Of a DNA stretch of 59,066 bases, positions 134 through 59,066 are shown in pieces (the stretch's first letter is position 1; each line of letters opens with the position of its first letter). The stretch comes from Candidatus Kapaibacterium sp. Lineage in GTDB: Bacteria; Bacteroidota; Ignavibacteria; Kapaibacteriales; HRBIN21. The notes below the pieces were generated by a model. The model was not told where the DNA came from, did no database searches, and was given only the letters and a program-made list of their open reading frames with translations. Location of the stretch: assembly GCA_938084565.1 (NCBI GenBank), contig CALKEU010000012.1, forward strand, positions 1 through 59,066, read 5' to 3'. The position numbers and the translations under genes are program-made.

Positions 134-3100
134 TTATCGCACAATGCGCACCTGCTCTACCTGCACCTGTTGCCCGTTGCGCAGTACTACCACATAGACC
201 CCACTGCCCCATCCCGACGTCCCCACTCGCACCTGCCCCTGCCCCTCTACGGCCCCACTCCAGACCCGCCGCCCTAGCCCATCGTATACCTCTACCACCC
301 CACTGCCCCCATGCTCTACCCATACCTCCTCCTGCGCCACACTCGGATATACCCGCAACCACAGCCCTCCCCCTGCCACCGGCGCCCCCTCTGATCCCTC
401 GCTCAACTCCACTACCCCACCACCATTGCGCCGAATAAAGTCTATCGTCGCCCGCAATACCCGATCTACCTGCCCCCAGTGCCGCCACTCTACCCCGTAA
501 TAGACCACATTCCACCCCAGCGCCGCTGTCCCTACCCCTGCAACCGTATCCACTACCCCTGCATCCCGATCCTCATACACATACGCCGCCTGCGCTAACC
601 CCTCCGTACTGCCATCACTCCACACCCGTAACAGCGCCGGCATCGGTACATCGATACTCCCCTTGATCCCCTCCCGTATCCCCCAACCGATGGCCCGCCC
701 CACAACATATCGCCCATCATATCCCCCACTGACCGGCGTCCCCGGCGCTACATACCGCGCCCGCAAAACCCGACGCACAAACCACTCGTCATTGATCGGA
801 TCCAACCCAACGTGCGCCCGCGCTACCTCCTGCGAACTGATCACTATGTTCCGCTTCTGCCCATACTGCCCTCCCCGCACATATCCCCGCACCGCTTCCC
901 GCTCCCACTCGCTGACTGCCCCCTCCCGCCCAGACCACATCACCGACCGATATCGACTGTAGTCGACCGTCCGCGGCTCCCACCCACTCCGATCCAAAAT
1001 GTCGTAATCATACCTGCCCTGCCCCACATCCACTCGCCACCCCAGCCGGCTCACCCCCGCAAGCAGACTGTCCCCATTGGCCCTCCCCCGTGCACTCCCC
1101 CGGTCAACGGTCACCATCACCGGCGATCGCTCTATATAGTAGCGAACCTCCTTGCTCACCTCGTTGTTACTCCCGTTCTGATCCGGCTGCCCCGTGGCCA
1201 CAATCCGATACCGCGGCGTCACATGCTGCCCCATGCCCTCAAAGGCCCCAGGCACCGTATACCCACTCAACTCCGCATACGACTCCACCCGAAACCGCCC
1301 AAAGTCGATTACCTTCTCCTCCCCAACCCGCAAATCCACCCGCTCCTCCCGCTCATACACCGGCACCGTAAAGGCTCCCCCACCATCCTCCCGCCATACC
1401 CGCACCCGTACCCGCCACCCAACAACGTCGCTGATCCCACGATTGGCTACCCGTACCTTCACCCCTACCGGGTTCCGCCCCATCACATACTCGGCATCCC
1501 CCCTTGCCCCACTGCTGGCCCGCCATACCCACGGCTCCTCTATCCGCACCAGCGCCACATCCTGCTGATACTCCCGCCCCTGAAACTCATCGGCCCCTAT
1601 GTCCGGCCGGCTCCCCCCGGCCCCACGTACCTCCCCATCTATGTCCCGACCCCATACATATACCCCACGATTGCTCAAAATCGACCCCAACGGACTCGGA
1701 TTCACCCGCACCCGTAAACGCTCTATCACCCCCCCGATCACCTCATAATCCCCTACCCAATTGCCCTCCTGACTCCCAAAATCCTGCCCCGTGGCTACCT
1801 GCCAATCGGCCAACCGCCTATACTCCCCATCCTCCCCTAAACGAACCCCATACTGCCCCTCGGCCTCCACTACCTCTACCATCCGCACGACATCCCCACC
1901 AGGCACCCAGTACGCATTCCGATCCTGCTCCACTGCCCCACTGACCCGACGCGGATGCCACCCCTCATACAAAATCCCCGCCTTCATCCCCGCTCGCCCT
2001 ACCTCCACAGCTATCGCATTGTTGACCACCACCGTCCCATACCCTTGCTGCACCCCAAGCCCAACCACATACCCACTCCCCACTACCCCATCCTCCTTCA
2101 GCCACACCGTGTTGTGCGCCACCGTGTCCCCACGCATCCAATACCCCCACCGCCGCGGCACCACAAAACCCATCGGCCCACCCTGGCTCGGATCACGCTC
2201 GGTCCACATGTGGATCCCCACCATATGCGCCCCTGCCCCAGCACGCCGTAAATCCCACACAATGTTGTTGACTACCCGCACCCGCTCGGCTACATCCGGC
2301 ATCACCACCGGCTGCGGCTCCAACCCCGTCAAATAATTCTGTACCTGCTCCACCACAATGCCTCGCGCCATCACCACCGAACTGACCCGCGTCACCTCAT
2401 TGCCCTCAATGACTATCCCTACATTGTTGTACCCCATCCCCCCAGCCAAAATCCCAACAGCCGCCTCCCCTCCCCCTGTGGCCTCTTGCCCTACATTGTC
2501 TATCCGATTCCCCCGTATCTGCGTCCCCTCCTCGTACCCCACAAAAATTCCCCCACCACGCACGTTCGTGATCACATTCCCTACATACCGGTTCCCCTCA
2601 TTGTAATACCGCCTCACCTTCGCCGGCCCCGCCTCCTTCAACGGCCCTAACCCTAACGACACTATCCCCCACCCAAACCCACTAATCTCACACCCCTCCA
2701 CAACATTGCCCGAATTCTTCACCGTGTCCAAAATGTCAACCCCCTGATACGCCGATAAACGCCAGTTCCGTACCACTACCCCCGCCGAATACGTCACAAC
2801 TTGCCCCCCAACAACCCGCACATCCCCCTCCCACTCAAATTGCCCTAACGCTACATTGTACCTCACCCGCGGAATCGCCGTCGCAAAACTGGCCGACGTC
2901 GTCGGCGCATTCCCTATCAGACAGTTCCTCACCTCTACATGATGACCCCCACGACCTATGTAAAATACCGCCCGCCTCCCCTGACTCACCGGCGCCTCTA
3001 ACTCAAAACGCAATGACTTCTGCTGCCCACCATCAAAAATGATGTACCCGGAAAAGTTGGCGTCCTTTGGATCTCGTGTCACATAGTAGACTGCACTCAA

Positions 3101-5209
3101 GTTAGAAGGCGTCGTCGACTGTGCCATGTACACTCCGATTCCCGAAGCGCTCTTAAGGCGGATAGTAACGCTACCTCGCTGCAGTGCCCGCTGCCCATAG
3201 GGGCGGAACGTAACCGTATTCTGCGCATTGACCCCTATGATTCGACTGCTCAAGTCAATTGCCGGCTGACCTGATGCTACATCCCCTACTTCGTAATAAG
3301 CATCCGTAAACTCAAACACGACCGGCCCACCAACCCCCCGCTGGTAGAGTGCATCGATGGCCTCTTGAATGGTGTTGAAGTTGCGCGGACTTCCCGCAAA
3401 GAGCGTCCCAATCGTGTACGTGCCCGACAGCGGCCCCTGGACCGTAAACTCCGTACACGCAGTATTGTTGGTTGTCAGCTGGTCACGCGGATCAGTCACG
3501 TAAATACACGCCCGATAGGTGCCCGCCTGTGGCGGAATGAAGTAGCGGAAGTTTATCGGTATCGTGCTGCCAATCGGCAGGTCGGGAATGACTGTATCAG
3601 CAACGTAGACATCCTGCTGCGGGAGTGGCGACAGCCGCGTAATGACCATCCGCACTTGCACATTCGTGACGTCCCCAATTCCATTGTTTGTGAATGCCCC
3701 AATGGGGGTAAAAGGACGCCCCGCATACAGCGTCACATTAGAGCTCGGATAGACAACCTGTGTAGCTGCTACCTCGAAGTCATAGGCTACTTCGAAGATA
3801 TAGTCTCCCGCCGTCGGCAAGCAGTTGTTGGCAGGCTGATTATCCGTGGCATTCAAAAGGGTCCCGCAGACCTGGAGCCGGTACAGTCCTGGCTGCGTCG
3901 TCTGGGTGAAACGAGCAAAGTTGATCGTCACCTTCTCTGTGCTCGGTAGGGTTCCTGTCCACGTAACCGTATCAGCGTAGATACGGGTGTTGTCGGGTAG
4001 ACGCCAAATCTGCGCAACCGCCCGAAAGGCAGTAATTGTGTTGAGCCCAACATTCTGGAAGCGTGCTGTGACAGGAATCGAGATACCCATGGGGTACTTC
4101 GTCCGTCGTGGTGGGGCATTGCTCTGCGGATCTACAATCTCTATGGCGGCTAAGTCATTCGGGAAAGCAACGATGAAGTCCTTGATCCACTCCTGCGTAT
4201 AGCCAGGCATACTGTAGCTGGCAATGAGCCGGTAGGATCCTCCAACGGCATTGGTCAAGTCCAAAGCCCCACCGCTTCCTGCATAGGAGCCCTTTGCACT
4301 GCCCATCGTGTAAGTGTAGAGGCCCGCCGTGGGGTAAGAAAGATTGATAATCGTATCATTCGGGTTCCCGCCTTCGGTAGCAATGTAGACGGGATTCTGC
4401 GAAGGGAGTGGTCCTACGATCTTGTAGGTTAGTGCAATATCGCCTCGCGCTCGAAAGGTCAATGAGGGTTTCGGATGCTGAGCATCTTGGTCTGCATAGA
4501 TCTCGCCTGCTCGCAGAATGCGTCGCGGATCCACATCATCGGGGAAGGACTCTACAATACCGCTCAGCACCCCAAACCGGAAAACGGGGCGCCACGTATA
4601 CCCCGCCCATCCGCTGAAGAGCTGCACGCAGTAATCAGCACCGTCGCTAATGTAGTATACATGAGGATAGAATACGTTCGGCACCGTTGTACCCCAGTAC
4701 TGCGGGAAGTTGTACGTAAATCCCGTCCGGTAGCTACAGATCTCGATGAGGAGATTGGATTGGCCATCCCAGGTGAAGGGAACACTGAAGGTGTGGATAT
4801 TCCAGCTATTGGCTTGGGGCACGAAATTGTCCACATCGTAGACGAGTGTGAAGGTACTGCGGTCATTATCCAGCATGGTCAGAGCAGAGGCAGTTGTATG
4901 CTTAATCCAGATGCGGTAGCGGCGTGGCGGCGGTGGAGTGTTAGCATAGTATGCTCCTACCTGGACTCCGAGGGCGACAATTTGCCCCCCGGGCATTCCG
5001 GCAGCTTGCATTTCCGAAGCACGGATTAAGTACTGGCTCCGCCCTGTCCACCAGTAATCGTGGTATGGATTAGCATAGTCATACTGATACCACCCCTGAC
5101 TACTTCCCGGCCCTCCGGTTACGTCGTACCAGGTCTGCGCAGAGAGCCCAAAGGATGATATCACGATGAGCACAGCACCGATTATGCTCTGGAGGATTCG
5201 AGTCGCCAT
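134..5209 (-). CDS. giant secreted beta-helix protein with T9SS C-terminal sorting domain
   Basis: A 1691-residue surface or secreted protein. The ATG at 5209 is chosen because it follows GGGAGAG and opens a clear signal peptide (MATRILQSIIGAVLIVISSF, then SAQ cleavage); upstream in-frame codons lack both. In order it shows a jelly-roll-like region (about 30-220), two CARDB-like Ig modules (about 350-600, each with an NxG turn), a 'YTIG...F.TIQEAIDAL' entry motif near 610 that often precedes right-handed beta-helices, a long beta-helix region (about 700-1200), a third CARDB-like module near 1250 and a tail of about 80 residues ending GVYVVVLRNGQQ...VRIVR. That tail is typical of type A T9SS sorting domains (Por_Secre_tail), which are removed after export. 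Ligand unknown. The DNA for the last ~970 residues has a very different composition from the first ~720. Confidence 0.9.
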   Translation of the reverse strand: MATRILQSIIGAVLIVISSFGLSAQTWYDVTGGPGSSQGWYQYDYANPYHDYWWTGRSQYLIRASEMQAAGMPGGQIVALGVQVGAYYANTPPPPRRYRIWIKHTTASALTMLDNDRSTFTLVYDVDNFVPQANSWNIHTFSVPFTWDGQSNLLIEICSYRTGFTYNFPQYWGTTVPNVFYPHVYYISDGADYCVQLFSGWAGYTWRPVFRFGVLSGIVESFPDDVDPRRILRAGEIYADQDAQHPKPSLTFRARGDIALTYKIVGPLPSQNPVYIATEGGNPNDTIINLSYPTAGLYTYTMGSAKGSYAGSGGALDLTNAVGGSYRLIASYSMPGYTQEWIKDFIVAFPNDLAAIEIVDPQSNAPPRRTKYPMGISIPVTARFQNVGLNTITAFRAVAQIWRLPDNTRIYADTVTWTGTLPSTEKVTINFARFTQTTQPGLYRLQVCGTLLNATDNQPANNCLPTAGDYIFEVAYDFEVAATQVVYPSSNVTLYAGRPFTPIGAFTNNGIGDVTNVQVRMVITRLSPLPQQDVYVADTVIPDLPIGSTIPINFRYFIPPQAGTYRACIYVTDPRDQLTTNNTACTEFTVQGPLSGTYTIGTLFAGSPRNFNTIQEAIDALYQRGVGGPVVFEFTDAYYEVGDVASGQPAIDLSSRIIGVNAQNTVTFRPYGQRALQRGSVTIRLKSASGIGVYMAQSTTPSNLSAVYYVTRDPKDANFSGYIIFDGGQQKSLRFELEAPVSQGRRAVFYIGRGGHHVEVRNCLIGNAPTTSASFATAIPRVRYNVALGQFEWEGDVRVVGGQVVTYSAGVVVRNWRLSAYQGVDILDTVKNSGNVVEGCEISGFGWGIVSLGLGPLKEAGPAKVRRYYNEGNRYVGNVITNVRGGGIFVGYEEGTQIRGNRIDNVGQEATGGGEAAVGILAGGMGYNNVGIVIEGNEVTRVSSVVMARGIVVEQVQNYLTGLEPQPVVMPDVAERVRVVNNIVWDLRRAGAGAHMVGIHMWTERDPSQGGPMGFVVPRRWGYWMRGDTVAHNTVWLKEDGVVGSGYVVGLGVQQGYGTVVVNNAIAVEVGRAGMKAGILYEGWHPRRVSGAVEQDRNAYWVPGGDVVRMVEVVEAEGQYGVRLGEDGEYRRLADWQVATGQDFGSQEGNWVGDYEVIGGVIERLRVRVNPSPLGSILSNRGVYVWGRDIDGEVRGAGGSRPDIGADEFQGREYQQDVALVRIEEPWVWRASSGARGDAEYVMGRNPVGVKVRVANRGISDVVGWRVRVRVWREDGGGAFTVPVYEREERVDLRVGEEKVIDFGRFRVESYAELSGYTVPGAFEGMGQHVTPRYRIVATGQPDQNGSNNEVSKEVRYYIERSPVMVTVDRGSARGRANGDSLLAGVSRLGWRVDVGQGRYDYDILDRSGWEPRTVDYSRYRSVMWSGREGAVSEWEREAVRGYVRGGQYGQKRNIVISSQEVARAHVGLDPINDEWFVRRVLRARYVAPGTPVSGGYDGRYVVGRAIGWGIREGIKGSIDVPMPALLRVWSDGSTEGLAQAAYVYEDRDAGVVDTVAGVGTAALGWNVVYYGVEWRHWGQVDRVLRATIDFIRRNGGGVVELSEGSEGAPVAGGGLWLRVYPSVAQEEVWVEHGGSGVVEVYDGLGRRVWSGAVEGQGQVRVGTSGWGSGVYVVVLRNGQQVQVEQVRIVR

Positions 5210-52631: not shown

Positions 52632-53018
52632 CTACGGGGCGGCTACATACTTGCGTTCGATCACCTGCCGAATCTCCTCGGCGAACGTAGTGGTGCTGAT
52701 CGGCTTGACGATATAGCGATCGAAGCCGCTCTGGAGATAGTACCGCTGCTCGCTCTCCTGCGACAAGCCTGTGACTGCAATAGCCGGAACGTGCTCGCCG
52801 CCAGGCAGTGCTCGGAGGGCACGGAGTACCTCTATGCCATGGATGTCTGGCAAGATCAGGTCGCAGATAAGCGCCAGCGGGCGCGCCTGGCGCAACCACT
52901 CTATGGCTTCACTGCCACGCTCAAAGCTCACAACGCTAAATCCTGCCTTCGTCAGCAGGATCTCCATGAGCTTGCGAATAGGCGGGCTGTCCTCAACGAG
53001 GCAGATCGGCTGTTGCAT
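52632..53018 (-). CDS. single-domain response regulator
   Basis: A 128-residue receiver-only protein. Acidic pocket Glu9-Asp10 (LVEDSPPIRKL), phosphoacceptor Asp53 (ICDLILPDIHG), Thr83 (AVTGLS) and Lys105 (IVKPIS) are all present. There is no output domain, so it acts through protein contacts or as a phosphorelay intermediate. The ATG at 53018 has AGGAG nine bases upstream; a TTG at 53042 would overlap the OmpA gene. Its cognate kinase is not in the window. Last gene of the surface-protein operon. Confidence 0.92.
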   Translation of the reverse strand: MQQPICLVEDSPPIRKLMEILLTKAGFSVVSFERGSEAIEWLRQARPLALICDLILPDIHGIEVLRALRALPGGEHVPAIAVTGLSQESEQRYYLQSGFDRYIVKPISTTTFAEEIRQVIERKYVAAP

Positions 53019-53031
53019 GGGGTCGGCTCCT

Positions 53032-54360
53032 TTATTGGACAACGATAATGTCCACCCGCCGGTTCTGCAATCTTCCCTGCAGCGTTCGGTTATCAGCGAT
53101 GGGCTGACGGGCTCCCACGCCGGAGGCTAGCAGCCGCGAGCGGCTGATCCCACGCTGCACGAGGTATTCCACCACCTGCTGTGCCCGCTCTTCGGAGATA
53201 CGCTGCGTCTCCTCGAGTGTCCCGCCGAATTCATCCGTATGGCCGATGATACGGACCTCCGCTTGGGGATTGGTCCGAAGGTAGTCCACTAGCGCATCGA
53301 GATAGCGCTGGAGCTCCGCCGTCACGCCAACAGCCGTGGGCGTTGGATAGCTAAAGCGCATCACTCGATTGGGGACAATGGTAATGGCAGGCCCACTGGC
53401 CGGTCTCGGCCCAAGAGAGAGCTCTGCAGGAGCCTGGGGGACGACGGGAGTTCCAACAACTGCCAGCGGCTGTGGGGTTAGGCGCTCTGCCGGAACTTCT
53501 CGGGACAGCCCTGCCTCATGGGCGAGTTCGACAGCACCCTCAGCTCCTCGCGGGAGGCGCACTGTCTGCAGCCGTTCCCAGCCCAGCTTAAAGCTCAGCC
53601 CTGCCCGTAGGGCTACCGGTGTCCAGCTCGAACCCCACGTGCGTTGCAGTGGTAGCCCGGTCTGCAGGAGCACAACTGGGGTAACAGCATTGCGCATGTG
53701 CTCACCGAGCAGCGCCACAACCAAATCGAGCCCAACACCGCAGTGGAATCCCAACCACATCGGCAGCGGCTGCTCCTGCTGGAGACGCCATTCCTCGACA
53801 CGCTCAGTGTTGCGAAAGAGCGTGCGCACTCGTTCTCGGGCATTCCAGAGGAAACGAGCATCGATGCCAGCCAGGAAGTGGAGTCCTTCCCAGAGTGTCC
53901 CCTTTCCCCAGCCAGGTGCGTACCGTGCTGAGGCTGTCACGAGGGCTGAGGTAGAGTGAAGCTCCATCTCGTACCGCTCTCCCATCAGGCTCCCTGCAGG
54001 CTCGAAGCTCGCCCGTCCGGTCCAGCTCTCCCAGGGCACCACTTGTAGCAGAGCACCCCAGCGCTGCCCCGGAGGATTCCATTCAGCGTGGATCCAAAAG
54101 CCCACACCGGTGCCACTGCCATAGCGGAACTCTAGGAGGCCGCGATCGGGTGTTTCGACCACCCGCGGGAGCCGGAGCCGTCCGAGATAGCCAATCCCAC
54201 TACTGCCTACCCCTACGCCGACCCACCACTCCTGTGGCCGCCGCTCCACAACGAGCGTATCCCCTTCGGGCAGGAGCCATCGCTCGCGGACGACCCACTC
54301 CGGACTCTGCGCCCAGAGTGTTAGCACCCCAACGCCCAGCAGCATAACTCGGCATCCCAT
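53032..54360 (-). CDS. OmpA-family outer membrane protein
   Basis: A 442-residue protein with an N-terminal signal peptide (VMLLGVGVLTLWAQ), a ~230-residue beta-rich part that could be an outer-membrane barrel (YLGRLRLPRVVETPDRG, GAVEL), a Pro/Ala linker, and a C-terminal OmpA peptidoglycan-binding domain (about 330-442). That domain has EVRIIGHTDEFGGTLEETQRIS, ERAQQVVEYLVQRGI and NRTLQGRLQNRRVDIIV, including the Asp/Arg pair that binds diaminopimelate. Its ATG overlaps the upstream stop (TAATG). Confidence 0.88.
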   Translation of the reverse strand: MGCRVMLLGVGVLTLWAQSPEWVVRERWLLPEGDTLVVERRPQEWWVGVGVGSSGIGYLGRLRLPRVVETPDRGLLEFRYGSGTGVGFWIHAEWNPPGQRWGALLQVVPWESWTGRASFEPAGSLMGERYEMELHSTSALVTASARYAPGWGKGTLWEGLHFLAGIDARFLWNARERVRTLFRNTERVEEWRLQQEQPLPMWLGFHCGVGLDLVVALLGEHMRNAVTPVVLLQTGLPLQRTWGSSWTPVALRAGLSFKLGWERLQTVRLPRGAEGAVELAHEAGLSREVPAERLTPQPLAVVGTPVVPQAPAELSLGPRPASGPAITIVPNRVMRFSYPTPTAVGVTAELQRYLDALVDYLRTNPQAEVRIIGHTDEFGGTLEETQRISEERAQQVVEYLVQRGISRSRLLASGVGARQPIADNRTLQGRLQNRRVDIIVVQ

Positions 54361-55598
54361 TAGCGGATCAGCTGCGCTTTGATAACTGCCCGCGAAAGCT
54401 CCACCGAGGGATCATCGACCGGGTAGGCAATCAGCACGATATCGTAGAGGCCCTGAGAGGCATAAGCAGGTGTACGCCACTCAAGACTATACTCGCCTCG
54501 CGGCATCTCACGCCGCTCCATCACTGTGGCCAGCTCCTTACCCTTGAGGTCATACACTTTGATGCTCAGCAGCACTCGGTCTTCGAGCCGATAGCGGATA
54601 ACGGTGAAGTCCGTAAAGGGATTCGGATCCGTCTGAGCAAAGCTAATGACGGCATGCGGAATTGCAACGCAGACGCGCCCGTGATATCTCATCGCCCCCG
54701 AGAAGCTCACACTCCAGAGGTCGTAGCAGTAGTTTTCTCCCCGTCGTTTGGCTCCATCGGCATCCAGGTAGGCATAGCTGCGTCCGGTATCACTGACACC
54801 TAACCCAGCCAATCCTGGAGCTCGCTGCCAATCGGCCACGATCACCGAATCCACAAGCTCATCCGTATTGAAGGGCTTCCACCACCGTACGAGCAGAAAG
54901 CCTCGATTGAACGCTTCGCTCTCCGTCCGCCAGCTGAGCCGTACCTTCCGATCTCCAATGTACACCGCCTGGAAGTCCGTGACACGATGGGCGGGCACCC
55001 GCATTGGCTGAAGCCGATACTCCATCCGAGAGACCAGCTCCACATTATCATCAGCCCGCACCCATGGAGCGACATCCTCCCGCTGCTTTACTGCAAAGGC
55101 CTGGTAGTACTCGAGCGGATGAGCCCATTCCAGCTGATACGGCACCGGAGAGCCATCGGTAGAGAACAGTTGCAAGCGCCCCAGTCGCAGCAGTGTATCC
55201 CAAGGCATGAGCTGGCTGGAGGGAAAGTCTGAGGGACCATAGATAGTCATGCCCAGCCGTGGGCGCGTCCACTGCATCCCCGCCACAGGGGGCTGCCAGA
55301 GCACGAAGGGCTCGATGCGGTAGATTGTCGTATCCAGGACACTGCTGCCGGGCACAAGGCGTGCCTGGAGGACCGACCACGGCTTCAGGGAATCCGGGAG
55401 CAGCAGGCACAGCGTCCCATTGGCGAAGCCTTCCCACTCCAAGCCGCGACGCCGCATTAGGAAATCGACCTCCAGCGTATCAGGCACCTGCTGCGGCAGT
55501 ACAACGGCTGTGAGCACAGCTGTCGGTACCTGGGCCCCGAGTTCGACGGCCCCGAACAATACAGCCAAGAGCCACCCCCTGATGTGCATCCAGCGCAT
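54360..55598 (-). CDS. T9SS-sorted secreted protein
   Basis: A 412-residue protein with a signal peptide (MHIRGWLLAVLFGAVELGAQ). The N-terminal part (about 25-180) contains LEVDFLMRRRGLEWEGFANGTL, as in other T9SS cargo of unknown role. A fibronectin-like stretch (VRLSWRTESEAFNRGFLLVR) near 220 is followed by a type A T9SS C-terminal domain (about 325-412) with TDPNPFTDFTVIRYRLED and MPRGEYSLEWRT. The ATG at 55598 overlaps the preceding stop (TGATG). Partner or substrate unknown. Confidence 0.85.
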   Translation of the reverse strand: MRWMHIRGWLLAVLFGAVELGAQVPTAVLTAVVLPQQVPDTLEVDFLMRRRGLEWEGFANGTLCLLLPDSLKPWSVLQARLVPGSSVLDTTIYRIEPFVLWQPPVAGMQWTRPRLGMTIYGPSDFPSSQLMPWDTLLRLGRLQLFSTDGSPVPYQLEWAHPLEYYQAFAVKQREDVAPWVRADDNVELVSRMEYRLQPMRVPAHRVTDFQAVYIGDRKVRLSWRTESEAFNRGFLLVRWWKPFNTDELVDSVIVADWQRAPGLAGLGVSDTGRSYAYLDADGAKRRGENYCYDLWSVSFSGAMRYHGRVCVAIPHAVISFAQTDPNPFTDFTVIRYRLEDRVLLSIKVYDLKGKELATVMERREMPRGEYSLEWRTPAYASQGLYDIVLIAYPVDDPSVELSRAVIKAQLIR

Positions 55599-57628
55599 CA
55601 GCGCACCACCACGGTTACTCGTTCGCGGTTGTTCCACGTCACGTTGAAGTCCCGTGTCGTGACAATGCCGCTCAGATCTGTATCGGGGTTTGCGTACCCT
55701 TCCACATGCTGCCAGAGCTGGAGCAGGCGCAGATCCTCCTCGTCAATGCGGCCATCGCCATTGACATCCCCGCCGATCATGGCCCAGATTGTCCGGCCGT
55801 TATCCCGGAGAGCGCGCAGAGAGCCGGTGCCCCCCAGGAGGCGCTCTGGATCCTGCGTCAGCGCCAACACCTGGTGCTGTGTCTCGGGCGCAAGCTCAAC
55901 GGGTTCTGCCGTGATGATGGCTAAGTGGTTACGGTGATGGAGCGCCACGTAATAGCTCCCTCGCTCCAGTCCTGGCAGCGTCACCGGACTTTTGCCATCC
56001 AGATCCACAATGCGTCCATCGCGCCGGACAAAGGCGGTCCGATAGTACCGCGCCCCGCCCGTCAACAGGGTCCGGAGTTCCACAACGACCCAGTCCACCA
56101 CGGAATCCGGCAGCGGGCTGACTCGAATATAGGGGCGCATTGGGTCGAGCGTGTACGGATAGATCGCCGGTGGGGTCTCCGGTAGCCAGCCCCGCTGACG
56201 CAGATCGTCGGCCATGGAACCATTCCGGTAGGGCCCCTCGAGCACGGCCGCCAGCTGCAGCTGGAGGGCGCGGGCATCATCGCGCAGCCCTATAGCAAAC
56301 TCGCCTGCTCCGTAGACCTCGTCAGCGTAGGCATAGGCCCAGCCGACGGCTGTATCGACCTGCGGTGGGCTGGAACGTCCGGCGGCAAACCAGCCATCGG
56401 CTGTCCAGCGTTGCAGGACAAGAGCCGGCACAGGCAAGCCCTGTGTCTCATCGCGGTCTGCCCCGGGCAGATGGCGCCACCCATAGCCCAGGCGCACATT
56501 GAGTCCCTGAGTGAGAGAACCCCCGCTGGTATCCCATGCCCGCAACTGCAGAACACGCCACACCTTGCGCTCGCTCTGGGGGCGCCAGGGCCGCCGCCGC
56601 GGCAGCACACGCATTTCAAGTTGCCCAATGCTACCCCACTGCGCCGCCTGTACATAGGTGTACGGATTGTTGAAAACCACCGGCTGGCCATCTGTCCGCA
56701 GCCGCGTCCGGCGCATCCTGCCAATAATTTCGGCATCCGGATGGAGGAAGTGGGGGTCAGAGCGCTCAGCCAGGTATGTGAGGACCACATGGCCGTTTGT
56801 ATCCGTCCCGGTCTCTGTCCAGATTGGTGCCCGCAGGACGAGACTCTCCGCCACCGCAATGGAGGAGCGCAGCACCACCCCGCTGTCATTTTCCACATAC
56901 ACTGCTCGCACCGGCAGTGTCTCCGGCGGCAGCTCAGGACCACTCTCGATAATCCCCTGCCCCACGTACCGTACAGCGAGATCCCGACCGTATAGTGGCG
57001 CGGCGGCTATACCACTGGCCGACGTGCGAATGATGAGCGCCGAATCCCCCAGACGGAAATTGTGCTCGGGGCTGTTCCGCAGCAGTCCACGCTTGAGTTC
57101 CAACACCGTCGAGACCGTAAAGCCCCCACCATTGCGTATCTGTGCTCCACTGGGATTATCGAGCTCCAGCTCTCGGTAGAGTCCGGCTCCCCACAATCCC
57201 TGCTCCCGCTCCCCCTGCAGAACCACTCGGCCGTAGAGAAACTCCGGATTGATCACGCCCCAGTGTGCCGCCTCCCCCCGAGCGACAACGGACGCCCCGC
57301 GCGCCAGCCGCAAGACCGTGCCGGAATCGCTCTCGAAGTGCTGCAGTGCAACGAGCGACCGTGCCGTGTCCAACAGCATCTTCCGCGTGCGTCCCGTAAA
57401 CCGCACATCCTCGTACACAATGTGCGGCACATACTGGTTAACCCCCTCGCGGTCCCACGCATAGACGACCTTTCCGCCGAGCGTATCCTGCCGCAGCACA
57501 GCGTTCCCCTTGATGACAATGGTGCCATAGTTGTGAATGGCTCCTTCACTCCGCAGCTGCGCCAGCACAGGCAGAATCGCTCCTCCGAAGAGCAGAAGGA
57601 ACGCTGCACTTCGTATCAGACCCACCAT
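55598..57628 (-). CDS. secreted protein with C-terminal dockerin-type repeats
   Basis: A 676-residue protein with a signal peptide (VGLIRSAAFLLLFGGAILPVLAQ). The start of the mature part, AIHNYGTIVIKGNAVLRQD, resembles repeat units of surface adhesins. Near 625-676 are two dockerin-like calcium loops, GDVNGDGRIDEEDLRLL and NPDTDLSGIVTTRDF, both with the D-x-N/D-x-D/S-G-x-I/V-x-x-x-D pattern. No T9SS tail is seen. The ATG at 57628 follows AGGAGGAGGG, a very strong Shine-Dalgarno; a frame from 57694 lacks one. Dockerins often hold proteins together through cohesins; no cohesin is in view. Confidence 0.85.
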   Translation of the reverse strand: MVGLIRSAAFLLLFGGAILPVLAQLRSEGAIHNYGTIVIKGNAVLRQDTLGGKVVYAWDREGVNQYVPHIVYEDVRFTGRTRKMLLDTARSLVALQHFESDSGTVLRLARGASVVARGEAAHWGVINPEFLYGRVVLQGEREQGLWGAGLYRELELDNPSGAQIRNGGGFTVSTVLELKRGLLRNSPEHNFRLGDSALIIRTSASGIAAAPLYGRDLAVRYVGQGIIESGPELPPETLPVRAVYVENDSGVVLRSSIAVAESLVLRAPIWTETGTDTNGHVVLTYLAERSDPHFLHPDAEIIGRMRRTRLRTDGQPVVFNNPYTYVQAAQWGSIGQLEMRVLPRRRPWRPQSERKVWRVLQLRAWDTSGGSLTQGLNVRLGYGWRHLPGADRDETQGLPVPALVLQRWTADGWFAAGRSSPPQVDTAVGWAYAYADEVYGAGEFAIGLRDDARALQLQLAAVLEGPYRNGSMADDLRQRGWLPETPPAIYPYTLDPMRPYIRVSPLPDSVVDWVVVELRTLLTGGARYYRTAFVRRDGRIVDLDGKSPVTLPGLERGSYYVALHHRNHLAIITAEPVELAPETQHQVLALTQDPERLLGGTGSLRALRDNGRTIWAMIGGDVNGDGRIDEEDLRLLQLWQHVEGYANPDTDLSGIVTTRDFNVTWNNRERVTVVVR

Positions 57629-57665
57629 AGCCCTCCTCCTGCGCAGCCTGCCAGACACGTGCTGC

Positions 57666-57715
57666 CGGGAGCCCCCTGGACTGCTCTCCTCCACATACAG
57701 CGCAGGGAGCTCCCG
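57666..57715 (-). promoter_or_regulatory. long inverted repeat in the leader of the dockerin gene
   Basis: Arms of 13 bases (57666-57678 and 57703-57715) pair with a single T-G wobble around a 24-base loop. On the minus strand it lies 37 bases upstream of the dockerin gene's ATG and 18 bases after the preceding stop. No T-run follows, so an attenuator or mRNA-stability hairpin is more likely than a terminator. The sequence GACTTTTG just before it is one base off TAnnTTTG. Confidence 0.45.
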
Positions 57716-57733
57716 ACAAAAGTCACACCCACC

Positions 57734-59066
57734 TTACTGACCCACCTCCAACGTCCCGAAGTTGTGAATCGTCGCACCGGAAGCGTTTGTCAAACCACCG
57801 GGAACCCGCAGCGTCACCCCGTTCCCTGCGGTCGTGTAGACCACAAGTCCCGCATCAATCGGTGAGCTACCCATATCCGGTGTCCCAGAGCTAATCGTCG
57901 CCGTCCCAGCACGATTGTTGATAAGAGCACCCGGTATGTCAGGGTTGAGTGCAAAGGTCTTAGGACCGCTCGTGGATCCAAAGAGCAGTGCGCTGTTCAG
58001 TGTAGACCCGATGGTAATCCTGGCTGCAAGCTGCGTAGGATACTGCTCGTTGACGGCGTAGTTATCGATCGTCCGCACGTACCCGGCATGCACGGTGTAG
58101 CCGTCGATCACGACCTCATCGGTGGGCGAGGGCTCTGTCCCTTCATCCCATGTAGCTGGGTTCGACCAGCGGCCGTGCCTTATAGCGTAGAAGACACTCG
58201 GCCCACCGCGGAGGAGTAGATCGTTACCCGAGGCAATGAAGCCGAAGCCATTCGGTACCGCTGTAGCCGTGCCCTGAATCCCTGCCAGCTCGATGTAACC
58301 TAGGTTCGAACCTGCCGCAGCCAAGCGTTGGTATGCCTGCCCAGTAGAGACCTTCTCAGGCGTACCGGAACTCGGGGACTCATAGAAGCGCAAGTTGCCC
58401 TGGTTAACGTTGGTATTCCACGTCCCGGGGATGTCAGACACCTTATACCCGATGCGGAAGGTCGCTGTCCAGGCGTTGCTGCCGGCCCAGCTGACGGTGA
58501 CCTTCCGCTGCACATCCCGCGTATTGTCGTAGTTGTTCGGATTGGTCTGCGGGAACGCAGCAATCGTCATCGTGTTTGGGAGTGTGCCAGCAGTGAAGTC
58601 CACAATTGTCTGGGCGTTGTTGAAGGTATACGAGCCCGTGCCGCCAAGAGCGCGCTGCATTGCACCCACGATCTCGGAGTTAAGCCCTGCGCCGGCGTAG
58701 CTTACTGAGGCTGTCGGCGAGGTCATAATCCATGTCTGCCCGCTGGCGACAGTAATATTGTCACTCTGCACCGTCAGGTTACCTGCTACGTAGACATCAC
58801 CCCCGCTCTCGGTCGTCTTCGTACCGCCAGAGGTCTGGACGTTCCCGAAAGGACGGCTGCTCACAGTATAGGGGATCTGCTGCCCATTGGCCGTCGCCGT
58901 AAAGGCCAGCGTTGAGGTTGCATCGAAGGTCCAGTTCGTCCGGGCTGGGAGGTTGTTCTGCAAGGTACCGGCGATATTGAGCGTGGTATTTGCATCAAGC
59001 TGGAGTTGGGCATTGCTCGAGTTAGCCAGCGACAGCGTTGCCCCGTTCTGGACCGTCGCTGTGCCG
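57734..59066 (-). CDS. secreted adhesin-like beta-rich protein, 5' end cut by the window edge
   Basis: The frame is open to the right edge; a TTG at 58963 is not the real start, because coding continues upstream (TLSLANSSNAQLQLDANTTL). At least 444 residues are visible. Ser/Thr/Asn-rich strands with turns resemble the passenger of surface adhesins. SVFYAIRHGRWSNPATWDEG with DEVVIDGYTVHAG is the 'W.nPaTW' G8-like motif seen in many secreted Bacteroidota proteins. The C-terminus, GATIHNFGTLEVG, resembles the N-terminus of the next protein (AIHNYGTIVIKG). No T9SS tail. Function unknown; surface attachment is likely. Confidence 0.8.
   Translation of the reverse strand, partial: GTATVQNGATLSLANSSNAQLQLDANTTLNIAGTLQNNLPARTNWTFDATSTLAFTATANGQQIPYTVSSRPFGNVQTSGGTKTTESGGDVYVAGNLTVQSDNITVASGQTWIMTSPTASVSYAGAGLNSEIVGAMQRALGGTGSYTFNNAQTIVDFTAGTLPNTMTIAAFPQTNPNNYDNTRDVQRKVTVSWAGSNAWTATFRIGYKVSDIPGTWNTNVNQGNLRFYESPSSGTPEKVSTGQAYQRLAAAGSNLGYIELAGIQGTATAVPNGFGFIASGNDLLLRGGPSVFYAIRHGRWSNPATWDEGTEPSPTDEVVIDGYTVHAGYVRTIDNYAVNEQYPTQLAARITIGSTLNSALLFGSTSGPKTFALNPDIPGALINNRAGTATISSGTPDMGSSPIDAGLVVYTTAGNGVTLRVPGGLTNASGATIHNFGTLEVGQ

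What the first reader, a model, noticed from the sequence alone, without database searches (positions are those of the whole stretch)
53018..59066. A translationally coupled surface-protein operon with possible split-adhesin architecture
Four coupled genes (adhesin-like protein, dockerin protein, T9SS-tailed protein, OmpA protein) are followed by a receiver domain, all minus strand, with TGATG and TAATG overlaps. Only one of the first three has a T9SS tail, and one carries dockerin-type calcium loops that would bind a partner. The C-terminus of the adhesin-like protein (TIHNFGTLEVG) and the N-terminus of the dockerin protein (AIHNYGTIVIKG) look alike. The set could be a multi-part cell-surface machine anchored by OmpA, or an old split of one larger T9SS protein.
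Basis: inference. Interest (0 to 1): 0.55.

Follow-up and report, generated by a model that had tools for sequence, protein, structure and literature searches.

The report
Cohesin-dockerin adhesin anchored by T9SS
A bacterium of a little-known order near the Bacteroidota carries a conserved set of neighbouring surface-protein genes in which one rod-shaped protein ends in a dockerin-like plug and the very next gene makes a socket-like protein with a type IX secretion tail, so the adhesin is probably clipped to the cell by the kind of protein joint best known from cellulose-degrading bacteria.

Summary
The operon is real and deeply conserved, and its core can be explained. The "dockerin protein" (DOC) has a beta-helix body and a C-terminal region resembling scaffoldin X-module-dockerins. 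The next gene, overlapping it by one base (TGATG), encodes "TAIL": its N-terminal domain resembles the CipA cohesin, followed by an Fn3-like domain and a PorU-like T9SS C-terminal domain (CTD). DOC is directly upstream of TAIL in 63 of 63 loci; the two co-occur in 61 of 62 same-order genomes (the exception is a contig end). Full-length TAIL was in none of 232 sampled genomes of the class outside the order. There, 17 of 22 X-dockerin genes are followed by a short T9SS-tailed gene, against 4 of 105 other genes. The adhesin-like protein (ADH) is a tandem paralogue of DOC; two lineages carry fused versions, most simply derived, so an "old split" is not supported. Best model: ADH stacks on DOC, DOC plugs into TAIL, T9SS places TAIL on the surface. 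Binding is inferred; sequence alone does not prove the cohesin; how DOC, lacking a CTD, leaves the cell is open. A new variant of a known joint, not a cellulosome.

The parts
57734..59066 (-). ADH: C-terminal 443 residues of the adhesin-like protein (close relatives 741-787 aa by mechanical start choice); 5' end lost at the contig end; no T9SS tail or dockerin found
   Evidence: no Pfam match at E up to 1; ADH profile positions 33-485 homologous to the DOC body
55598..57628 (-). DOC: 676 aa; N-terminal signal by eye (residues 1-24), beta-helix body, C-terminal X-module-dockerin-like region; no T9SS tail found
56579..57529 (-). DOC residues 34-350: right-handed beta-helix body
   Evidence: AF2 pLDDT mostly over 90; phage tailspikes Z up to 12.7, rmsd 5.4, 267 aligned
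55601..56269 (-). DOC residues 454-676: X-module-dockerin-like dyad
   Evidence: all 6 of the 50 listed rows confined to about 453-676 are entries of cohesin-X-dockerin complexes or CipA pieces (4wi0, 5g5d, 3kcp, 4fl4, 4u3s, 2b59; Z 7.4-7.7, rmsd 3.7-4.0, 135-137 aligned; that the matched stretches are the X-dockerin parts is recalled where the title does not say it); the only PDB sequence hit is 5lxv_B, E 0.17, a dockerin by recall
55733..55768 (-). calcium loop 1, DVNGDGRIDEED (residues 621-632)
   Evidence: four ligand positions (loosely defined) kept in 31 of 44 rows
55649..55684 (-). calcium loop 2, DTDLSGIVTTRD (residues 649-660)
   Evidence: four ligand positions (loosely defined) kept in 43 of 44 rows
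54360..55598 (-). TAIL: 412 aa; cohesin-like domain, Fn3-like domain, T9SS CTD; ATG overlaps the DOC stop by one base
55005..55532 (-). TAIL residues 23-198: cohesin-like domain
   Evidence: 4fl4_I Z 10.3, rmsd 3.6, 135 aligned; 3kcp_A Z 9.8, rmsd 3.3, 133 aligned; that these chain stretches (5-146, 8-146) are the CipA cohesin is recalled
54654..54992 (-). TAIL residues 203-315: Fn3-like domain
   Evidence: 2ibb Z 10.4, rmsd 2.7, 101 aligned
54363..54653 (-). TAIL residues 316-412: T9SS C-terminal domain fold
   Evidence: PorU 6za2_A residues 1056-1157, Z 10.9, rmsd 2.3, 90 aligned (that this is PorU's CTD is recalled); Pfam Por_Secre_tail only 12 bits
53032..54360 (-). OMPA: 442 aa, OmpA domain at residues 347-434; ATG overlaps the TAIL stop by one base
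52632..53018 (-). REC: stand-alone response-regulator receiver, 128 aa
   Evidence: directly after OMPA in 30 of 47 loci

Best explanation
The cluster encodes a surface adhesin built from separate pieces and held by a cohesin-dockerin joint. TAIL is exported by the type IX system through its CTD and displays a cohesin-like domain. DOC, a beta-helix rod with a C-terminal X-module-dockerin, plugs into that cohesin in a calcium-dependent way. ADH, a paralogue of the DOC body, stacks end to end on DOC's N-terminus through matching beta-solenoid rungs, so the finished object is a long rod clipped to the cell. OMPA (peptidoglycan-binding type) and REC (signalling) are conserved helpers of unknown role. 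Shown: gene order, co-inheritance, predicted folds, calcium-loop conservation, natural ADH-DOC fusions, and a T9SS translocon gene in this genome. Inferred: binding, stacking, surface location and export route.
For: TAIL model pLDDT 91.7: the only two of the 50 listed rows confined to residues 23-198 are CipA-type cohesins. DOC model pLDDT 88.5: all six listed rows confined to about 453-676 are X-dockerin dyads; 3kcp and 4fl4 appear in both lists, matched by an early stretch in one and a later stretch in the other. DOC directly upstream of TAIL in 63 of 63 loci, 40 overlapping. Co-occurrence in 61 of 62 same-order genomes, 51 with both and 10 with neither; both kept even where they lie on different contigs (G011, G037). 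Second calcium loop in 43 of 44 rows. In other families of the class, 17 of 22 X-dockerin genes are followed within 250 bp by a T9SS-tailed gene of at most 450 aa, against 4 of 105 other genes and 4 of 34 T9SS-tailed genes; 0 of 22 have their own CTD (16 of 22 in the first count). One such protein is Coh-Coh-X-dockerin (Pfam Cohesin 1.2e-23) followed by a T9SS partner; another locus has a 279 aa Cohesin protein (35.1 bits, cut-off 24.1) beside an X-dockerin gene. Long ADH-DOC fusions in 6 tree rows and short ones in 5. SprA_N is present in this genome.
Against: By sequence TAIL's first domain matches no Pfam family at E up to 1, and hhalign against a cohesin set built here gave E 0.02 one way and 0.13 the other, no better than unrelated controls (0.03-0.41). 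The X-dockerin Z values (7.4-7.7) are under 8, and the second loop is modelled at low confidence (pLDDT under 50 at 651-664). The genome has a second weak cohesin-like stretch (21.1 bits, cut-off 24.1) in another protein. Inside the order none of 19 extra X-dockerin genes in seven other genomes has a T9SS-tailed follower, and G020 has X-dockerin matches but no TAIL N-domain match. Outside the order the pairing also has misses (5 of 22; 8 or 9 of 19). DOC and ADH have no known signal for crossing the outer membrane.
Confidence: 0.68

Rival explanations
1. The X-dockerin-like region is itself a new kind of T9SS sorting tail, and DOC is exported and attached on its own; TAIL is a separate cargo that merely sits beside it.
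For: 0 of 22 and 0 of 19 X-dockerin proteins have a CTD detected by the profiles used; in most loci the region lies at the protein's end; inside the order extra X-dockerin genes stand without a T9SS follower.
Against: The region folds like X-dockerin dyads; one copy lies near the N-terminus of a protein (L148); the neighbour is cohesin-like and co-inherited.
Confidence: 0.12
2. DOC docks to another cohesin-like protein of the cell (for example the ORF at G000:C2:127574) and TAIL has other duties.
For: A weak Pfam Cohesin match lies elsewhere in the genome, in a protein whose end looks like a T9SS tail by eye.
Against: It is below cut-off; DOC and TAIL overlap and are lost or kept together.
Confidence: 0.1
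3. An ordinary operon of independent T9SS-related surface proteins, with the dockerin-like loops only stabilising DOC's end.
For: Sequence matches to Dockerin_1 are below cut-off and to Cohesin absent; loop 1 is degenerate in 13 of 44 rows.
Against: The cohesin-like fold in the neighbour, the 17 of 22 against 4 of 105 association elsewhere, and scaffoldin-like proteins with the same X-dockerin family.
Confidence: 0.1
4. The genes are the pieces of one larger ancestral T9SS protein that was split.
For: Single-gene ADH-DOC versions exist.
Against: Fused forms are two single clades and two changes from the split state suffice (the base of the order is unresolved); ADH and DOC bodies are homologous to each other, which fits duplication; no fusion with TAIL was seen in the loci mapped.
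Confidence: 0.05

Closest known systems
Type II cohesin / X-module-dockerin joint of Clostridium thermocellum CipA and relatives
   Same: predicted folds of both partners; calcium loops; X-module next to the dockerin; used to hold a large protein at the surface (role recalled)
   Different: the anchor here is a T9SS CTD instead of SLH or sortase (known anchors recalled); cargo is a beta-helix adhesin; sequences too far for Pfam cut-offs
Mechanostable XMod-Doc:Coh adhesion complex of Ruminococcus champanellensis (PMC7456326, abstract and outline seen)
   Same: adhesion role of an X-module-dockerin with cohesin
   Different: gut cellulose-fibre adhesion; no T9SS in what was seen
Cloacimonadota scaffoldin-like protein with cohesins and CTD (PMC8542988, passages seen)
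   Same: cohesin protein proposed to be attached by a CTD
   Different: one large scaffold for dockerin enzymes; here a paired, overlapping, single-copy adhesin/anchor operon
T9SS type A cargo (PorU-like CTD)
   Same: CTD fold of TAIL
   Different: TAIL would act as an adaptor for a second protein

Membership tests
Cohesin-X-dockerin pair | cohesin fold in one partner | tested here: met
   TAIL 23-198: Z 10.3 and 9.8 to CipA-type cohesins over 135 and 133 residues; domain not folded and searched alone
Cohesin-X-dockerin pair | Pfam Cohesin / Dockerin_1 above curated cut-off | tested here: not met
   TAIL no Cohesin match at E up to 1; DOC Dockerin_1 15.2 against 22.9 bits
Cohesin-X-dockerin pair | EF-type calcium loops in the dockerin | tested here: met
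   both in the window; across rows loop 1 in 31 of 44, loop 2 in 43 of 44
Cohesin-X-dockerin pair | X-module-dockerin dyad fold | tested here: inconclusive
   six of six listed rows for the range are X-dockerins but Z is 7.4-7.7 and loop 2 has low confidence
Cohesin-X-dockerin pair | specific binding of the two | not testable with these tools
   no complex prediction or assay on hand
Cellulosome | scaffold with many cohesins and dockerin-bearing enzymes | tested here: not met
   one cohesin-like domain in TAIL, one X-dockerin in this genome, no enzyme domain found in the operon
T9SS type A cargo | CTD | tested here: met
   PorU CTD fold Z 10.9, rmsd 2.3 over 90 residues, though HMM 12 bits against 27
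T9SS type A cargo | T9SS translocon in the genome | tested here: met
   SprA_N 145.4 bits, cut-off 27; other T9SS core genes not tested
SprB/SprF gliding adhesin operon | type B CTD and SprF (PorP) family neighbour | tested here: inconclusive
   no such Pfam match in the five window proteins, but the contig ends inside ADH, so upstream genes of this genome were not seen

The most novel reading that the evidence does not exclude
The dockerin is a portable ticket for type IX export: dockerin-ended proteins with no CTD cross the outer membrane by riding on the CTD-bearing cohesin partner, folded and bound in the periplasm. In some genomes of the order one TAIL would then serve many dockerin clients, such as the X-dockerin copies of G014 (13 matches to the DOC profile, in open frames of up to 4145 codons; one TAIL N-domain).
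Probability: 0.2. Interest if true: 0.85.

Novelty: new variant of a known kind. Interest (0 to 1): 0.6.

Why it matters
It offers an answer to how surface proteins without a type IX tail could be held on these cells: a two-gene plug-and-socket made of parts known from cellulosomes. It gives a defined pair to test, widens the use of cohesin-dockerin joints from enzyme scaffolds to beta-helix adhesins, and suggests a function for a C-terminal region of about 220 residues for which the Pfam scans here gave only partial, sub-threshold matches. An X-module-dockerin:cohesin joint measured elsewhere acts as a catch bond under force (PMC7456326, abstract), which would suit attachment in flowing water; that this organism lives in such a place is a guess from the names of related records.

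Tried and rejected
Rejected: the split-protein idea; a cellulosome (no enzymes, one cohesin). Sequence-only proof that TAIL's domain is a cohesin failed: no Pfam match; hhalign TAIL-N against partner N-domains E 6e-4 (probability 28%) one way and 0.015 (3%) the other; partner N-domains against cohesins E 5e-4 (32%; one way only); TAIL-N against cohesins E 0.02 (2%) and 0.13; unrelated controls gave 0.03-0.41. Most outside-order partners' N-domains also lack a Pfam Cohesin match: of 9 partners one weak (E 0.014), and of 10 proteins one above cut-off. No PDB sequence hit for TAIL at E up to 1. The Foldseek list for DOC gave nothing at E 0.001. The missing ADH start was not found in the assembly. 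One promoter-like and one terminator-like site, no more than in shuffles. Pairing fails inside the order for 19 of 19 extra X-dockerin genes examined; for 16 of them the fetched stretch starts inside the gene, so only the follower could be judged, and further extra copies listed were not fetched.

Counting notes. Of the 23 outside-order X-dockerin hits with E up to 1e-30, 22 were used (G099:C31 left out); weaker hits were not examined; the 22 come from 14 genomes and are not independent; one of the 17 followers (L185) is a 151 aa frame with the tail only. The first count (16 of 22, 0 of 18) used an ORF picker that let longer antisense frames hide real genes; one search corrected it (L196 and L203 gained). 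The maps used the uncorrected picker. The tree used 35 of 62 SPLIT rows (the window and 34 drawn at random) and 14 of 40 outgroup rows; some rows labelled SPLIT are genes cut by contig ends (L074, L134, L143). In some searches only the top few candidates of each genome were scored. DALI-type rows are the 50 listed, not all matches. Literature: searches found no report of such an operon among the titles and abstracts listed; PMC5831590, PMC6851124 and PMC10266427 were seen in passages only, PMC3035643 is not held.
Full report
What is there. The window is one whole contig (G000:C12, 59,066 bp), and the finding lies at its end. On the minus strand are ADH (57734 to the contig end, 443 residues, start missing), DOC (676 aa), TAIL (412 aa), OMPA (442 aa) and REC (128 aa). 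DOC/TAIL share one base in TGATG and TAIL/OMPA one base in TAATG; ADH-DOC are 105 bp apart and OMPA-REC 13 bp. Pfam supports OmpA and the receiver clearly; Dockerin_1 and Por_Secre_tail are below cut-off, and ADH has no match. The closest named records by DOC identity are Bacteroidota bacterium GXS.bins.67 (79%), Candidatus Kapaibacterium sp. SKYG35 (76%) and Bacterium HR21 (72%); many order members in that list are named Kapaibacterium, Kapabacteria or Ignavibacteria.

Conservation. The DOC protein has a match in 53 of 61 genomes at E up to 0.01, a few of them only to its C-terminal part. Maps of 40 loci plus the window show ADH-DOC-TAIL-OMPA again and again. In 63 genome-contig loci with a TAIL, DOC is the gene directly upstream in 63 of 63 (40 overlapping; median gap -1). 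ADH is directly upstream of DOC in 46 of 47 where it can be seen (and fused to it in 5 more), OMPA is within the next three genes in 48 of 57, and REC directly follows OMPA in 30 of 47. Of 62 same-order genomes, TAIL is in 51 (50 over its length, G058 cut at a contig end); in none of the 232 other genomes of that call does a match cover it (best outside E 2.7e-29, model positions 226-408 only). In the phylum sample of 395 genomes the best match outside the order is again partial (6.2e-30, positions 214-397). DOC is found in the same 51 genomes plus G297, whose DOC runs off a 4,423-bp contig; both are absent from the other 10, counting G008's weak partial match as absence. These counts were read by me from the listings. 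In G011 and G037 the two genes lie on different contigs yet both are kept.

What the parts are. AlphaFold2 models were made from alignments of the window protein with named loci: TAIL mean pLDDT 91.7 (48 sequences), DOC 88.5 (44 sequences). TAIL: residues 203-315 Fn3-like; 316-412 match PorU residues 1056-1157 (Z 10.9, rmsd 2.3, 90 aligned), its CTD by recall. For residues 23-198 the only two of 50 listed rows confined there are scaffoldin pieces, 4fl4_I (Z 10.3, rmsd 3.6, 135 aligned) and 3kcp_A (Z 9.8, rmsd 3.3, 133 aligned), in the stretch that is the CipA cohesin by recall. DOC: residues 34 to about 350 form a right-handed beta-helix (phage tailspikes, Z up to 12.7). All six listed rows confined to about 453-676 are X-module-dockerin dyads, Z 7.4-7.7, rmsd 3.7-4.0, 135-137 aligned. 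Z under 8 alone is not proof. But 3kcp and 4fl4, which hold both modules, come up in both searches, once with residues up to 146 and once from about 156 on. The only PDB sequence match to the DOC profile is 5lxv_B at E 0.17, profile 624-668; that it is a dockerin is recalled. Calcium loop 2 keeps its four ligand positions (loosely defined) in 43 of 44 rows and loop 1 in 31 of 44. A strict loop is found in the last 95 residues of 69 of 73 order sequences and 27 of 40 outside it, against 0.12% of shuffles.

The same pairing elsewhere. Outside the order, brought in 19 X-dockerin genes in 11 loci (L136, L139-L141, L144-L149, L151). Ten are followed by a short T9SS-tailed gene and one by what looks like a broken one, while the four of L136, two of L139, and those of L147 and L148 are not. 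Nine of those followers all match Por_Secre_tail, eight above cut-off (L140's is 23.3 against 27 bits). I then took 22 new X-dockerin genes from 14 genomes, chosen by their X-dockerin match (regions). 17 of 22 are followed within 250 bp by a T9SS-tailed gene of at most 450 aa, against 4 of 105 other genes and 4 of 34 other T9SS-tailed genes (Fisher p 2.5e-13 against the 105; the loci are related, so p is only a guide). None of the 22 carries its own tail (first gave 16 of 22, of which 8 followers also matched the N-domain profile built from the earlier nine). Of the five others, L193 and L198 have a T9SS gene upstream, one L190 gene is followed by a protein with a partner-like N-domain plus X-dockerin, and L187 and L200 have none. 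L202 holds a 787 aa protein with two Pfam cohesins (E 1.2e-23) and an X-dockerin, followed by a T9SS partner. L201 has a 279 aa Cohesin protein (35.1 bits), then a 397 aa protein with a borderline cohesin (24.0 against 24.1) and an X-dockerin, then another gene matching the T9SS-tail profile (Pfam 17 bits, below cut-off). So this X-dockerin family does occur with accepted cohesins. Against a strict rule: inside the order none of 19 extra X-dockerin genes in seven genomes has a T9SS-tailed follower. Seven of the eight order genomes with an A6 (TAIL N-domain) hit show one place and G027 one plus a weak one, while G020 has X-dockerins and none.

ADH and the fusions. ADH profile positions 33-485 align with DOC positions 43-429 at 99.2% probability, E 1.6e-19, so the two are paralogues in tandem. 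Fused ADH-DOC proteins of 1457-1549 aa and short fusions of 789-919 aa occur. On a tree of the X-dockerin region (60 rows) the order is one clade (100/99), the long fusions one clade (100/99) and the short fusions one clade (99/96), needing two changes among order members; the base of the order is unresolved, so 'derived' is the simplest reading, not a proof. Fusion in gene order, and the shared rung motif at ADH's end and DOC's start, suggest that the two solenoids stack.

Mechanism and limits. A T9SS translocon gene is present (SprA_N, 145 bits). TAIL should be exported and attached by its CTD, display the cohesin, hold DOC, and DOC hold ADH. Binding and location are untested. DOC and ADH have no CTD that I could find, so their crossing of the outer membrane is unexplained; riding on TAIL is the boldest reading. 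A second weak cohesin-like stretch in the genome (21.1 bits) could compete. OMPA and REC roles are open; in L066 a CHASE-PAS-HisKA kinase follows REC.

Verdict. Works like a cohesin-X-dockerin joint; not filed as a member of the Pfam families because their cut-offs are not met; not a cellulosome. A CTD-attached cohesin scaffold has been proposed in Cloacimonadota (PMC8542988, passages), so this is a new variant; I found no report of this operon in the searches.

Noticed in passing
L202:148-2511 and 2554-3714 (G090): Scaffoldin-like protein with two Pfam cohesins and an X-dockerin, followed by a T9SS-tailed partner gene.
   Followed up: partly
L190:5282-9008 (G072): Run of genes: X-dockerin protein, then a protein with partner-like N-domain plus X-dockerin (adaptor-like), then a T9SS-tailed gene.
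   Followed up: partly
L203-L211, L213, L214 (G014): One genome of the order has 13 matches to the DOC profile, 12 of them outside the operon and most covering the X-dockerin region; the 11 genes examined have no T9SS-tailed follower.
   Followed up: partly
G000:C2:127574-127699 (L152): Second weak cohesin-like stretch in this genome, in a large protein whose end looks like a T9SS tail by eye.
   Followed up: partly
L066:4009-5889 and 24-2219: A WD40 beta-propeller protein with a near-threshold T9SS tail sits between TAIL and OMPA, and a CHASE-PAS-HisKA kinase follows REC; similar-sized genes sit there in other loci of that family.
   Followed up: no
L033:12639-15665: Upstream of ADH in a close relative lies a 1008 aa protein with a Peptidase_S74 (tail-fibre chaperone) match.
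   Followed up: no
L113, L114, L125: Records titled Chloroherpeton thalassium and Bradyrhizobiaceae bacterium carry this cluster; the names are probably wrong.
   Followed up: no
L203:3735-6456 and L216:1104-3770: Pairs of neighbouring genes (688 and 182 aa; 178 and 702 aa) each with a partial match to the X-dockerin profile, directly after a full X-dockerin gene.
   Followed up: no
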